From the NCBI RefSeq assembly GCF_024494645.1, contig NZ_JANHDJ010000003.1, positions 248,001 to 312,000 on the forward strand: a stretch of DNA of 64,000 nucleotides, given 5' to 3'. The stretch comes from Halohasta litorea (lineage in GTDB: Archaea > Halobacteriota > Halobacteria > Halobacteriales > Haloferacaceae). How positions within the stretch are numbered: position 1 is the first letter of the stretch; each line of letters begins with the position of its first letter. Made by a program: the position numbers and the translations under genes. The notes under the pieces were generated by a model, which saw only the letters and a list, made by a program, of their open reading frames with translations, did not search any database and was not told where the DNA came from. Shown here one piece after another: positions 26,287 through 35,091 of the stretch.

Positions 26287-27021
26287 TCAAATATCAAAAT
26301 ATCCGTCTGGTAGATCAAAATAGGCTTCTGCTCGGTTTATATGAACATACAACCGGCTTTCTTCGTAAGACAACTGATCAATGTTACTCATACACCAAGA
26401 GAAATGATTTTCTAAATAGCTTATAATATTTTGGCGAGTATCATCATCATATGATTCCCACCATTTCCAGTTACGAGGATTGTCTGATGCAGATTCATGA
26501 ATTCCAATTCCGTAGGGAGCTAACCCTCTTTCAATATTGTGTGCATTTGCTATTGGTTCACCAAATGGAATACTATCTAACCAATCAACATTTGAAATGT
26601 CAGAATCCCCATTGGAATCGAAATCGGATCCATGATATACTACACCTTGTGCTATTCCTCCTCTCAGTAGGAAACCTAACCAAGGGCCATAATTATCACT
26701 AGCGTCATTATCCCTCATATATGTTAAATTTCCAAACTGTCTAAATATGTTACTCAGGATAGTTGGGATATACATCGGTTCATCATCGTTTGGATCATCG
26801 TCAGATAATATGTACATTCCATCTACCATAGGGTACACTTCAACATTTCCAACAAACCTATGATTCGCAACCGCTGCGAAAAGCTTCCCCACATTGACTG
26901 CAGCAGATTGATAGCTCCTACTCATTGCATCTCCAACACCCATTAAATCAACCCAACCAACATAGACTTCATCACCTTCAGCTGGAAGATGTTGAGGACC
27001 TAACCATGGATCATCTGGCAT
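26287..27021 (-). CDS. Orphan AT-rich gene; class III nucleotide-cyclase-like domain (tentative)
   Basis: 244 residues with strongly atypical codon use. By pattern it resembles divergent class III cyclase/GGDEF-like catalytic folds: YVGWVDLMGVGDAM at about 20-33 has an Asp (D25) as in the first metal site, VYPMVDGMYILSDD has a second Asp (D67), FLLRGGIAQGVVYHG follows near 118-131, and PFGEPIANAHNIERG at 152-166 resembles the cyclase segment that positions the substrate. Bacterial relatives include phage-defence nucleotide cyclases (Pycsar-type), but no effector gene adjoins. The identification is by eye and could be wrong; the foreign origin is the stronger claim. Confidence 0.55.
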   Translation of the reverse strand: MPDDPWLGPQHLPAEGDEVYVGWVDLMGVGDAMSRSYQSAAVNVGKLFAAVANHRFVGNVEVYPMVDGMYILSDDDPNDDEPMYIPTILSNIFRQFGNLTYMRDNDASDNYGPWLGFLLRGGIAQGVVYHGSDFDSNGDSDISNVDWLDSIPFGEPIANAHNIERGLAPYGIGIHESASDNPRNWKWWESYDDDTRQNIISYLENHFSWCMSNIDQLSYEESRLYVHINRAEAYFDLPDGYFDI

Positions 27022-28237: not shown

Positions 28238-29350
28238 CTATCCCGACCGAATCGCCCGCAGCCACGGCTCCCCCGGCCAATGCGTGCCGCCGATCTCGAT
28301 CACGCGGAGTTTGGACGCCAGCACGTAGACCGCGAGCGCGCCGAAGAACGTCGCGGGCGTCGACAGCAGATGCCAGCCGAGGGTCGCTGCCAGCGGGTAG
28401 CCAGCCGCTTCGAGTAGTTCACGTCCGGCCCGCAGGGCCGCAAACACCACCGGGTGGCAGACGTAGATCCCGACGGCGTAGCTCCCCCACGACGGCAGCG
28501 GCGTCCCACGACCGAGTTGTGGCCGCGAGAGGAGGAACAAAAACAGCGAGGCTGTCAGCAGCGCGGTCGTGATCCCGTAGCTCGGCGCGTAGACGTACGC
28601 GCCGAAGGCCTCGCCGCGCAGTGGGTAGCCCAGCGCATAGAACTCGCCGAACTGGGCGAGAGCGAACACGCCCGTCGCGGCGAGATACCGCCGACTGCGG
28701 TCGGACGAGGGCCGCCAGTCGCGGGCGGCGATCGTGTAGCCGAGGCCGGTATAAAAGAAGCCGAAAAACAGCCCGTCGCGGATCTCGAAGGGCACCTCGA
28801 CGAACATGGTGTAGTTCGTCCCAAGCAAGCCGACGACGTGGAACGCCGCCGCGACCGGCAGCAGATAGCCGGGCTTACCGACCGCGATGAAGGCGTATAC
28901 GAGGAGGAACGACACCGCCAGCGCCGGGAGGAACCACAGGATTTCGGAGACCGAGGTGCCGTAGTACAGCAGTTCGACCGGCGAGAGGAACGCGGCGACC
29001 GTCTCGATGGCGGCCGGAGCCAGCGGTCGACCGTCGAGTGCCTCGCTGCCGACGAGACCGATGAAAAACACTGGCGCGGACAAGGCCAATCCGAACACGT
29101 AGAACGACGAGATCGACGCGACCCGTTTTTTCAGGTAGGCGGTCGGCTCCCGGTCGGCAGTTTTGAGCGCGAACAGGAAGCCAGCGGTGACGAAAAAGAA
29201 CGGCACGGCGAAGCGGGCGGTCGTTTTAATTGCAAAGTTAACCATGTTGCCCAGCGTGCCGACCCCCTGAAACGGGTCGGTATGGATCATCACGATGAAG
29301 CCCATCGCAACGATTCGCATCGCATCGAGGCTGTAGATTCGCTCGCCCAT
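28238..29350 (-). CDS. Acyltransferase 3 family membrane protein, copy 1
   Basis: 370 residues, about ten hydrophobic helices. MGERIYSLDAMRIVAMGFIVMIH at the N-terminus holds the family's R-x(10)-H pattern (R11, H22 region), with FFFVTAGFLFA in helix three. Such proteins transfer acyl groups to sugars or surface glycans from the inner face of the membrane. It is a tandem paralogue of the gene at 29455: both encode exactly 370 residues, are alike throughout, and share their last 22 residues (from RVIEIGG) identically. No glycan-synthesis genes are adjacent, so the target is unknown. Confidence 0.87.
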   Translation of the reverse strand: MGERIYSLDAMRIVAMGFIVMIHTDPFQGVGTLGNMVNFAIKTTARFAVPFFFVTAGFLFALKTADREPTAYLKKRVASISSFYVFGLALSAPVFFIGLVGSEALDGRPLAPAAIETVAAFLSPVELLYYGTSVSEILWFLPALAVSFLLVYAFIAVGKPGYLLPVAAAFHVVGLLGTNYTMFVEVPFEIRDGLFFGFFYTGLGYTIAARDWRPSSDRSRRYLAATGVFALAQFGEFYALGYPLRGEAFGAYVYAPSYGITTALLTASLFLFLLSRPQLGRGTPLPSWGSYAVGIYVCHPVVFAALRAGRELLEAAGYPLAATLGWHLLSTPATFFGALAVYVLASKLRVIEIGGTHWPGEPWLRAIRSG

Positions 29351-29454: not shown

Positions 29455-30567
29455 TTATCCCGACCGAATCGCCCGCAGCCACGGCTCGCCCGGCCAGTGG
29501 GTGCCGCCGATCTCGATGACGCGGAGCCGGTCGGCCGCCAGATAGACCAACACCGAGAGGACGAACAGCGTCGGCGTCAACAGCAGATGCCAGAGGATCG
29601 TTCCATCGATGGTGTAGCCACTCGCCTCCAGGACGTCGCGCCCGGCACGGATCAGCGCGAACACCGCCGGATGGACGACGTAGATGCCGACCGCGTAGCT
29701 CCCCCACGACGGCAGCGGCGTGTCGGCACCGAGCTTCGGCCGTGATAAGAGAAACAGAAACAGCGACGCGGTAAACAGCGCCGTCGAGATCCCGTAGCTC
29801 GGTGCATAGACGTACGCGCCGAAGGCCTCGCCGCGCAGCAGGTATCCTAACACATAGTATTCGACCAGTTGCAGGGCCGCAAAGGCGACGACGAGCCCGC
29901 CGAGCAGCCGACTCCGGCTGGCGCTCGGCTTCCAGTCCCGACTGCGGATCGTAAAGCCGAGACTCGTATAAAAGAAGCCGAAAAACAGCGCGTCCCGAAT
30001 CTCGACGGGGATATCGACGAACATCGTGTAGGTCGATCCCAGCAGGCCGACGATATGGAACGCCAGCGCAATCGGGAGCACGTAGGCCCCTTTATCAAAG
30101 CGGATGAAGGGATAGACGAAGAGGAACGAAAACAGCAGCGCGGGGAGGAACCAGAGGATATCCGAGACGGAGGTGCCGTAGTAGAACAGGGCGACGGGAT
30201 CGACGTACTCCGTGAGGCTCTCGGTGACGGTCTGTTCAAGCGAGCGACCGTCGACGGCGGCGCGGGCGAGCCGACCGGCGAGGAACGTCGGCGCACAGAG
30301 CAGCAGTCCGAACACGTAGATGGAGCTAATCGACGTCACCCGGCTGCGGACGTAGTCGGCCGGGTCGCGCTGGGCGGCTTTGATCGCGAAGAAGTAGCCC
30401 GAAGTCATGAAGAAAAACGGCACCGCGAACCGGGCGGTCGTCTTGATGACGAACGTCGTCATGTTCCCGTAGTCGTTGAGCCCGGCGAACGGATCGGTGT
30501 GAATCATGACGATAAACACCATAGCGACGATCCGCATGGCGTCGATGCTGTAGATACGGTCGGCCAT
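29455..30567 (-). CDS. Acyltransferase 3 family membrane protein, copy 2
   Basis: 370 residues with the same domain plan as the neighbouring copy: MADRIYSIDAMRIVAMVFIVMIH start and FFFMTSGYFFA. The 104-bp gap to copy 1 and equal lengths point to a tandem duplication. Divergence is spread over the chain, concentrated in the membrane loops (residues 60-120), while the C-terminus and many DNA stretches remain close to identical, which suggests gene conversion at the ends. Both copies keep the conserved Arg/His residues, so both are probably active, perhaps with different acceptors. Confidence 0.87.
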   Translation of the reverse strand: MADRIYSIDAMRIVAMVFIVMIHTDPFAGLNDYGNMTTFVIKTTARFAVPFFFMTSGYFFAIKAAQRDPADYVRSRVTSISSIYVFGLLLCAPTFLAGRLARAAVDGRSLEQTVTESLTEYVDPVALFYYGTSVSDILWFLPALLFSFLFVYPFIRFDKGAYVLPIALAFHIVGLLGSTYTMFVDIPVEIRDALFFGFFYTSLGFTIRSRDWKPSASRSRLLGGLVVAFAALQLVEYYVLGYLLRGEAFGAYVYAPSYGISTALFTASLFLFLLSRPKLGADTPLPSWGSYAVGIYVVHPAVFALIRAGRDVLEASGYTIDGTILWHLLLTPTLFVLSVLVYLAADRLRVIEIGGTHWPGEPWLRAIRSG

Positions 30568-30680: not shown

Positions 30681-30980
30681 TTATGCGTCCTCGCTGGTGT
30701 CGATCGCGTCGTCCCCGCCGTACGGCGCGTTCGACTTCGCGTTGTCGTCGGTGTCGCGCTCGGTGACGATGCCATCACCGTACGGTGCGTTCGACTTCGC
30801 GTTATCATCGGTGTCGCGCTCGGTGACAACCCCTTTGTCACCGTACGGACCGGCGGCTTTTCGCTCCTTTTCGCCCTCGCTTTCCTCGACGATCCCCTCG
30901 TCGCCGTACGGTCCGGCCGCCTTCCGCTCCTTTTCGCCCTCGCTTTCCTCGACGATGTCGATTTCTTCGGTGTCGTTCAT
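30681..30980 (-). CDS. Small protein made of two pairs of 19-residue repeats ending PYGD
   Basis: 99 residues. After MNDTEEID come IVEESEGEKERKAAGPYGD (9-27) and an identical copy (30-48), then VVTERDTDDNAKSNAPYGD (51-69) and a near copy starting IVTERDT (71-89, ending APYGG), then an acidic 10-residue tail. The A and B units share the frame [IV]V-E/T-E...-PYG-D. No signal peptide, membrane helix or enzyme motif. Repeats with a constant ending resemble multi-core precursor peptides, but no modifying enzyme is near. It is divergent from pspA across 164 bp. Function unknown. Confidence 0.7.
   Translation of the reverse strand: MNDTEEIDIVEESEGEKERKAAGPYGDEGIVEESEGEKERKAAGPYGDKGVVTERDTDDNAKSNAPYGDGIVTERDTDDNAKSNAPYGGDDAIDTSEDA
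30714..30956. repeat. In-gene tandem DNA repeats (A-A-B-B)
   Basis: The four 57-bp units are at 30900-30956, 30837-30893, 30774-30830 and 30714-30770, minus strand. Within each pair the DNA is nearly identical, for example TCGCCCTCGCTTTCCTCGAC in both A units, so both duplications are recent; A and B units differ more. Confidence 0.85.
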
Positions 30981-31144
30981 GGATCGGTGTATTTACTCAC
31001 TACTGAGTTCTCACAAACTTATCAGTTCGTATGCTGTCGCTTTTTTCCACCGGAACTGGGAGCGACCGCCATATCGTCGCGAAACCGGTGCTGAGAGAGT
31101 TCGACTGTATGAGGATTTAAGCCCGACCTGTCCCAAAGGCGGCT

Positions 31145-31993
31145 ATGGGAATCCTTTCGCGAACCTCCTACGTCATTCGGTCGAAGATCAACGCGATCCT
31201 CAATCGGTCGGAGGATCCGAGCGAGACGCTCGACTACTCCTACGAGAAGATGCGCGACGAACTCCAGGACGTCAAACAGGGAATCGCCGACCTGACGACC
31301 CAGAAGAAGCGTCTGGAGATCCAGAAACGGCGGCTCGAAGAGAACGTCGAGAAACACAACAGCCAGGCCCGGGAGGCCGTCCAGCAGGATCGAGACGATC
31401 TGGCCCGGCAGGCCCTCGAAAAGAAGAAATCGAAGATGTCCCAGATCGAGGAGCTGGAGACCCAGATCGCCGATCTCGAAAACACCCAGGAGAACCTCGT
31501 CGAGAAGAAAAACAAGCTCCAGGGACGGATCGAGGAGTTCAAGACCAAAAAGGAAACGATGAAAGCCCGCTACGAGGCCGCCGAGGCCTCGACCAGGGTT
31601 TCAGAAGCGATGACCGGCGTTGGCGACGAGATGGACGACGTCGCCCGCTCGATCGAGCGCGCCGAAGAGCGAACCGACGAGATGGAGGCCCGTTCGGAGG
31701 CGATGGACGAACTGGAGGACTCGGGAGCCTTCGAGGACGCCCTCTCGGATAAGGACAGCATCGACCGCGAACTCGACGAGCTCTCTTCGAGCCGGGAGGT
31801 CGACTCCGAGCTCGATACGCTGAAAGCCGAGATGGGGAAAGCACCCGCCGAGGAAGAATCCGACACCGCCGACGAGGCGTCGGCCGATCTCGACGAGGAG
31901 CTGAACGCCGAGGGCGACGTCGACGTTGATGCCGAACTCGAAGACGCCGAAGTCGAAGCCGAACTGGACGAACTCAAAGACGACGAGTCCTAA
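31145..31993 (+). CDS. pspA: PspA/IM30 family protein
   Basis: 282 residues from the ATG at 31145 (MGILSRTSYVIRSKINAIL). The first 220 residues form the long helical hairpin of PspA/Vipp1, with the family's N-terminal amphipathic helix and basic segment, the heptads KKRLEIQKRRLEENV, and RVSEAMTGVGDEM. The haloarchaeal form ends in an acidic, mostly disordered tail of about 60 residues. It supports membrane integrity under stress, probably by coating the inner face of the membrane. No PspC or AAA partner gene is close; the repeat protein is divergent. Confidence 0.88.
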   Translation: MGILSRTSYVIRSKINAILNRSEDPSETLDYSYEKMRDELQDVKQGIADLTTQKKRLEIQKRRLEENVEKHNSQAREAVQQDRDDLARQALEKKKSKMSQIEELETQIADLENTQENLVEKKNKLQGRIEEFKTKKETMKARYEAAEASTRVSEAMTGVGDEMDDVARSIERAEERTDEMEARSEAMDELEDSGAFEDALSDKDSIDRELDELSSSREVDSELDTLKAEMGKAPAEEESDTADEASADLDEELNAEGDVDVDAELEDAEVEAELDELKDDES

Positions 31994-34176: not shown

Positions 34177-35091
34177 TTAAAAGCGGACTAACCGTGTCGT
34201 CCAGAAATCCGTCATCGCGTGATCGAGTGCCGCCTCGGGTTTGCCACCGGCATCGGTGCTGGCGGTGTGGTCGGCGAGGCCCGACAGTTCCTGGAGCACC
34301 GACTGCTCGCCGGTCAGGATTACCCGGTCGGGGTTGGCCCGATCGATGTGGTCGACCAGTAGCTCGCGGGCCTCGTCGAGATGGTCGTCGATCTGTTCGT
34401 TCCGAATTCGCTCGAAGCGGCCCTGTGAGAACCCACCCTTCGAGTGGTCGGATTTGACGTTGCTTTCGAACCCTGCGAACTCGGTTCGATCGCCGTCCTC
34501 GTAGACACCGACGGCGAACACGTCGGCCCGGACCACCCCGAACACGAGGCTGCCAGTGGGTCGGAACCACGACTCATCGACCCGGAACGTCTCGGCCCAG
34601 TCGACGAATCCCTCGGGGGTGATCGGCGGCCGGAGCGCGACCGAGACGAGCCCCGCGTCATCAGTATAATAAATAGCTGGCGCGGCACGCCGAACCAGCG
34701 GCCCACAGTCACCCGCGGCCTCGCTGACCGTCTCCGGGAGGGCAGCCTCCGCGTCGACGACCGCCGCACTCAGCGCACCTTCCGGCCCCGTTTGAAACGA
34801 TCGGAGCCGGTCGAGCACCGCGGCGAGGCGGCCGCCACGGAGCGATTCGGTGCCGCGGACGGTGCGGTCGGTGGCCGTCTCGCGGTCGGCCTCGCGGTCG
34901 AGGCGGTCTTCGAGTTCGATGATCTTGTCTTCGAGTTTGTTGACTCGCTGTTCGGCCTGCTGGCGATCAGCGACCGCATCGGATCGCCGCTCGGATTCGG
35001 CCGCCAGCTGGCGCTCCAGGTGGTGTTTTTCCTCTTCTAACTCCTGGATGCGCGCTTTGAGTTCGGCCCGGCCGAGCAGTTCGTCAAGCAT
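34177..35091 (-). CDS. Vms1/Ankzf1-like peptidyl-tRNA hydrolase (VLRF1 domain)
   Basis: 304 residues. An N-terminal coiled coil (about 5-70, RIQELEEEKHHLERQLAAE) is followed by an eRF1-like release-factor domain. The loop KGGFSQGRFERIRNEQ at about 218-233 holds the catalytic glutamine (Q223) in the GG-x-S-Q form seen in the Vms1-like release factors. Such proteins cleave peptidyl-tRNA on stalled large ribosomal subunits. The haloarchaeal version has the coiled coil where eukaryotic Vms1 has other domains. The gene is convergent with usp. Confidence 0.85.
   Translation of the reverse strand: MLDELLGRAELKARIQELEEEKHHLERQLAAESERRSDAVADRQQAEQRVNKLEDKIIELEDRLDREADRETATDRTVRGTESLRGGRLAAVLDRLRSFQTGPEGALSAAVVDAEAALPETVSEAAGDCGPLVRRAAPAIYYTDDAGLVSVALRPPITPEGFVDWAETFRVDESWFRPTGSLVFGVVRADVFAVGVYEDGDRTEFAGFESNVKSDHSKGGFSQGRFERIRNEQIDDHLDEARELLVDHIDRANPDRVILTGEQSVLQELSGLADHTASTDAGGKPEAALDHAMTDFWTTRLVRF

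What the first reader, a model, noticed from the sequence alone, without database searches (positions are those of the whole stretch)
30681..30980. Small protein of two recent tandem duplications, each unit ending PYGD
A-A-B-B arrangement of 19-residue units with constant PYG ends and DNA repeats that are almost identical within pairs. The ending x-P-Y-G next to a charged leader looks like a repeated core. Tyr-Gly motifs are targets of radical-SAM spliceases in bacterial spliceotides, but that analogy is weak because no radical-SAM gene is visible. It is divergent from pspA, so a membrane-stress role is another option.
Basis: inference. Interest (0 to 1): 0.58.

Follow-up and report, generated by a model that had tools for sequence, protein, structure and literature searches.

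The report
Halohasta-only repeat protein, sugar-type promoter
A salt-loving archaeon carries a small, probably unfolded protein built of four near-copies of a 20-residue unit; close relatives have four to six copies, selection preserves the unit, and the gene's on/off site resembles those of sugar-metabolism genes.

Summary
The ORF is real: 99 aa, minus strand 30681-30980, four units (periods 21, 21, 20 aa) in A-A-B-B order, divergent from pspA. All 4 Halohasta genomes held have it at the same site, with 4, 4, 5-6 and 6 units; no convincing relative was found in 166 other Haloferacaceae genomes, in a 392-genome draw of the order, or in viral, phage and plasmid collections. Third codon positions take most changes (pS 0.65, pN 0.10 between B units of different species), so the unit is kept as protein. 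The duplications are not recent: a sister species has the same A-A-B-B order. The model is unstructured (pLDDT 49). No radical-SAM gene lies within 32 kb in the three genomes with long contigs, and pspA linkage is ordinary synteny. The new lead is the promoter: a 16-bp palindrome just before the start codon, perfect in one species and imperfect in two, fits the published TrmB motif, and the same palindrome precedes glucose dehydrogenase, a glucokinase-like gene and type II GAPDH in Halohasta. I read it as a genus-specific, sugar-switched, disordered multivalent repeat protein. The regulator, the sugar response and any binding partner are inferred, not shown.

The parts
30681..30980 (-). 99-aa PYG-repeat protein gene (4 units, A-A-B-B)
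   Evidence: ORF; 4 of 4 Halohasta genomes; purifying selection
30903..30956 (-). unit A1 core, IVEESEGEKERKAAGPYG (residues 9-26)
30840..30893 (-). unit A2 core, IVEESEGEKERKAAGPYG (residues 30-47)
30777..30830 (-). unit B1 core, VVTERDTDDNAKSNAPYG (residues 51-68)
30717..30770 (-). unit B2 core, IVTERDTDDNAKSNAPYG (residues 71-88)
30994..31009 (.). imperfect 16-bp palindrome, AACTCAGTAGTGAGTA on the minus strand, operator-like, 13 bp before the ATG; TrmB-type motif with 1 mismatch
   Evidence: aligned sites in G001 and G003
31145..31993 (+). pspA (PspA/IM30 family), divergent neighbour with its own conserved promoter just before its start; not counted as part of the system
   Evidence: PF04012 E 3.9e-32

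Best explanation
A genuine gene found only in Halohasta, encoding a small acidic protein, presumably cytosolic and without stable fold, that presents one short peptide motif (core about DxDDNAKSNxPYG) four to six times. Its most likely mode of action is multivalent weak binding: each unit docks the same surface of a partner, and copy number tunes avidity. Its gene is most likely controlled by a TrmB-like sugar sensor bound to the palindrome between the presumed TATA region and the start codon, so that it is shut off without glucose and made when sugar is present, in step with glucose dehydrogenase. Shown: the gene, the repeats, their selection, the limit to the genus in the collections searched, the conserved palindrome and its presence before sugar genes. 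Inferred: which regulator binds, the direction of control, disorder in vivo, and the binding role. The partner is unknown.
For: Homologues in 4 of 4 Halohasta genomes at the same site (name). Selection on protein: B units across species pS 0.645, pN 0.099 over 78 pairs; G000 against G003, first 90 codons, differ 6, 8 and 35 times at codon positions 1, 2, 3. Model: mean pLDDT 49.3, pTM 0.10, no residue at 70 or more; no Cys or Trp, net charge -20 to -34. Palindrome TACTCAGTACTGAGTA perfect in G003, one of 8 pairs broken in G001 and two in G000, aligned about 8-14 bp before the ATG while much of the rest diverges. Published H. salinarum TrmB motif is TACT-N7-8-GAGTA (PMC4158304, passages). The palindrome with up to 1 mismatch has 42 sites in 4 genomes, all inspected; leaving out the 3 sites of this gene, 6 sit intergenically 0-100 bp before a called start, and 4 of these 6 precede sugar genes: glucose dehydrogenase twice (G003 copy matches PDB 2b5v, E 4e-162), ROK glucokinase-like, type II GAPDH above cut-off. 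gdh and gapII are TrmB-bound in Haloarcula hispanica (PMC10817205, section 21).
Against: The palindrome is not clearly enriched genome-wide: 45 matching rows against 31 for the reversed control over 4 genomes, and exact TACT-N7-GAGTA in G000 gives 12 against 21. Taken singly, only the G003 palindrome is unusual (10 of 5000 resamples reach it; G001 534; G000 2290). G002 lacks a clear site. The presence of TrmB in Halohasta was not tested. A GfcR-like gene follows gdh (label recalled), so another sugar regulator could own the site. TATA positions were judged by eye. Low pLDDT from a 4-sequence alignment is weak proof of disorder. No binding partner is known.
Confidence: 0.4

Rival explanations
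1. Hydrophilin-like protectant: a very hydrophilic disordered repeat protein that shields enzymes or membranes under water or salt stress, comparable in build to GsiB of Bacillus subtilis and group 1 LEA proteins.
For: Gly 8.1-12.1%, GRAVY -1.08 to -1.44 in all 4 proteins, no Cys or Trp; only 2 of 52 predicted genes in the window, this one included, pass Gly above 6% and GRAVY below -1 (cut-offs recalled). Description of hydrophilins read in PMC3691520 (passages).
Against: No Pfam match above cut-off in any of 4 proteins; the unit core is kept more strictly than composition alone would need; the promoter resembles sugar genes, not a known stress regulon.
Confidence: 0.2
2. Partner or regulator of PspA: the repeats bind PspA and modulate membrane repair.
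For: Divergent neighbour of pspA in 4 of 4 Halohasta genomes, 146-179 bp apart.
Against: PspA relatives occur in 54 of 60 genomes, yet the repeat gene was found only in the 4 Halohasta; pspA has its own conserved promoter; in at least 15 of 23 readable non-Halohasta loci the divergent gene is a hydrolase-like gene instead (label recalled), so the slot is not dedicated.
Confidence: 0.12
3. Multi-core peptide precursor: units are cut out and modified at PYG.
For: Tandem units with a fixed PYG end and changing copy number.
Against: No radical-SAM gene within 32 kb in G000, G001, G003 or on the 25-kb G002 contig; 10 neighbouring proteins of the window scanned with Pfam hold no peptidase or known peptide maturase; no secretion signal seen by eye; the whole 18-aa unit is conserved, not only a core.
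Confidence: 0.05
4. Derived from, or mimicking, the methylglyoxal synthase segment around ERKxSGPxGGD.
For: Profile hits L133 and L134 are methylglyoxal-synthase-like (label recalled) and match unit A at 12 of 18 positions.
Against: E 0.027-0.029 per genome in 392 genomes is chance level; the Halohasta copies read (L160, L166, L167, L168) have GPLGGD and lack the Tyr; in a local profile search the other such proteins score E of about 10 or worse; unit B, found in all 4 species, does not match.
Confidence: 0.03

Closest known systems
TrmB regulon of Halobacterium salinarum and Haloarcula hispanica
   Same: Promoter palindrome fits TACT-N7-8-GAGTA; shared with gdh and gapII promoters, both TrmB-bound in H. 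hispanica. That regulon also holds unexplained small proteins (HAH_0188, HAH_2805; PMC10817205, passages).
   Different: Binding not shown; TrmB of Halohasta not looked for; the repeat protein itself was not found outside Halohasta.
Hydrophilins / group 1 LEA proteins and GsiB
   Same: Small, very hydrophilic, Gly-rich, no Cys or Trp, tandem repeats of about 20 residues (repeat length of GsiB recalled).
   Different: No family match; no stress regulation known.
Multi-core ribosomal peptide precursors, including spliceotides
   Same: Repeated unit with a fixed Tyr-Gly end.
   Different: No nearby radical-SAM gene; whole unit conserved; no maturation genes among scanned neighbours.
PspA/IM30 system
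   Same: Adjacent divergent gene.
   Different: Not conserved with pspA outside Halohasta.

Membership tests
TrmB-type sugar regulon (as a target) | Promoter site TACT-N7-8-GAGTA | tested here: met
   Exact in G001 and G003, 1 mismatch in G000, not found in G002
TrmB-type sugar regulon (as a target) | Same site before known TrmB targets in this genus | tested here: met
   gdh (2 genomes), gapII (1 genome), and a glucokinase-like gene; 4 of 6 other promoter-placed sites
TrmB-type sugar regulon (as a target) | Site enriched genome-wide over control | tested here: inconclusive
   45 against 31 rows; 12 against 21 for the looser motif
TrmB-type sugar regulon (as a target) | A TrmB gene in the genome | not tested
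TrmB-type sugar regulon (as a target) | TrmB binds the site; expression changes with glucose | not testable with these tools
   needs ChIP, gel shift or RNA data
Hydrophilin | Gly above 6% and hydrophilicity above 1 (recalled cut-offs) | tested here: met
   4 of 4 proteins
Hydrophilin | Protects under water limitation | not testable with these tools
   bench assay needed
Group 1 LEA / GsiB | Recognisable family repeat | tested here: not met
   No Pfam family above cut-off, 4 of 4 proteins
Spliceotide / radical-SAM peptide | Radical-SAM splicease next to the precursor | tested here: not met
   PF04055 search of 4 genomes: none within 32 kb in three, none on the contig in the fourth
Psp system partner | Association with pspA across lineages | tested here: not met
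   Only in Halohasta

The most novel reading that the evidence does not exclude
A young gene, born in the gap before pspA in the Halohasta ancestor by amplification of one 20-residue motif, was wired into the old sugar regulon by gaining a TrmB operator, and now acts as a sugar-switched multivalent binder; unit types and numbers drift between species while the motif is held by selection.
Probability: 0.25. Interest if true: 0.6.

Novelty: new variant of a known kind. Interest (0 to 1): 0.4.

Why it matters
If right, it is a compact case of an orphan repeat protein recruited into a conserved archaeal sugar circuit, with a clear, cheap test (glucose against no glucose). It also gives a selected repeat unit to use as bait for a partner. 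If the promoter reading fails, it remains a well-supported genus-specific gene of unknown role.

Tried and rejected
Pfam and NCBIfam: nothing above cut-off for the repeat protein; weak Tudor_5 and MSSS scores come from summed short stretches, none passing alone. Solved structures: none. Plasmids, phages, viral contigs: nothing convincing. The first genome-contig scan with the single protein found nothing; the alignment query found two loci, one named Halohasta salina, the other a Haloferacaceae metagenome assembly. Methylglyoxal synthase origin: pursued and dropped. A Ca-binding DxDxD reading was considered by eye and dropped, since no Pfam model matched and unit A lacks it. Weak profile hits in the order (8 genomes outside Halohasta, E 0.002-0.05) were read: chance segments in unrelated frames, or the synthase segment. 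Coding on the plus strand (361-aa ORF) was rejected because changes concentrate at third positions of the minus frame.

Full report
What is there. The ORF at 30681-30980 (minus) encodes 99 residues with four units, cores at residues 9-26, 30-47, 51-68 and 71-88. The periods are 21, 21 and 20 residues. Within-pair DNA identity over the cores is 91% and 89%, and 10 of the 11 differences are synonymous.

Who has it. All 4 genomes of the genus have the gene. G003 has 4 units in A-A-B-B order, G001 has 6 B-type units, G002 has 5 B-type units after a degenerate first one. With the unit profile, 8 of 170 family genomes match at E 0.1 or better: the 4 Halohasta and 4 weak partial matches without a PYG end. 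In the order, 11 of 392 match at 0.05 or better: 3 Halohasta and 8 weak ones, of which two (L133, L134) carry ERKASGPYGGD inside a methylglyoxal-synthase-like protein.

Selection. Between species, B units differ at pS 0.645 and pN 0.099 (78 pairs; pairs are not independent). Between G000 and G003, over 90 codons, changes fall 6, 8 and 35 times on positions 1, 2 and 3. The protein sequence is under constraint. Since G003 shares the A-A-B-B order, the duplications predate that split; copies may have been homogenised since.

The site. In G015, whose PspA is the closest to Halohasta's, a TFS-like gene (label recalled) ends 152 bp before pspA with nothing between. In G002 the repeat gene sits between the TFS-like gene and pspA. 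In the other three Halohasta an acyltransferase follows it, confirmed by Pfam for the window only and cut by a transposase-like gene in G003. In at least 15 of 23 readable non-Halohasta loci the gene divergent from pspA is a hydrolase-like gene (counted by eye). So the gene appeared in Halohasta at a slot that other genera fill otherwise; linkage to pspA is plain synteny within one genus.

The promoter. The pspA side is conserved even in G015. On the repeat-gene side, G000, G001 and G003 share a 16-bp palindrome, TACTCAGTACTGAGTA in G003, about 8-14 bp before the ATG. H. salinarum TrmB binds TACT-N7-8-GAGTA (PMC4158304, passages). I read the context of all 42 palindrome sites with up to 1 mismatch in the four genomes. 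Apart from this gene's 3, six sit intergenically 0-100 bp before a called start: glucose dehydrogenase in G003 and G001, a ROK glucokinase-like gene in G001, type II GAPDH in G002, an aldo-keto-reductase-like/Ndk-like pair in G003, and a dihydrolipoamide-dehydrogenase-like gene in G000 (last two labels partly recalled). A further site in G001 lies inside an ORF 56 bp before a TBP-like gene, and one in G003 overlaps the start of a 93-aa ORF; I did not count these. Glucose dehydrogenase was confirmed for G003 by the PDB match, GAPDH by NCBIfam above cut-off, the kinase only by sub-cut-off ROK glucokinase hits. In Haloarcula hispanica gdh and gapII are TrmB-bound (PMC10817205, section 21 read). 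[quoted passage not shown] By eye, the repeat gene and gdh have the site close to or downstream of the TATA region, gapII and the kinase upstream of it, so I predict repression without glucose. Against this: little or no genome-wide enrichment, weak palindromes outside G003 when taken singly, no clear site in G002, and TrmB itself not searched.

What the protein may do. It is acidic, without Cys or Trp, and modelled without structure. Strict conservation of an unstructured unit repeated several times is what a multivalent binding motif would show; this is inference. The hydrophilin reading fits composition but not the strictness. The peptide-precursor reading lacks enzymes nearby.

Literature. 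Searches for Halohasta with 'phage shock' gave 0 papers and with 'tandem repeat' 2 papers, unrelated by their listing; a broader search and the haloarchaea/small protein/PYGD search, by listing, showed no such protein. Absence in print is claimed only for these searches. Papers read in part: PMC10817205 (passages and section 21), PMC4158304, PMC3691520, PMC7601130 and PMC11519228 (passages).

Noticed in passing
window 28238-29350 and 29455-30567 (-): Two adjacent acyltransferase genes (PF01757) of equal length (370 aa) next to an O-methyltransferase gene; absent directly beside the repeat gene in G002.
   Followed up: partly
L002 1899-3086: In G003 the acyltransferase after the repeat gene is cut short by a transposase-like gene.
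   Followed up: no
L094 1501-1516: In G001 one of only two exact palindrome sites lies 40 bp before a ROK glucokinase-like gene.
   Followed up: yes
L169 519-2214: Glucose dehydrogenase gene followed at once by an HTH plus phosphoribosyltransferase-like protein, GfcR-like (label recalled).
   Followed up: no
L176 1516 onwards: A 93-aa ORF in G003 starts at the last base of a palindrome copy (TTCTCAGTTCTGAGTA).
   Followed up: no
window 26287-27021 (-): 244-aa ORF without any Pfam match.
   Followed up: no
window 34177-35091 (-): Protein with a VLRF1-type release-factor domain (PF18859) in an archaeon.
   Followed up: no
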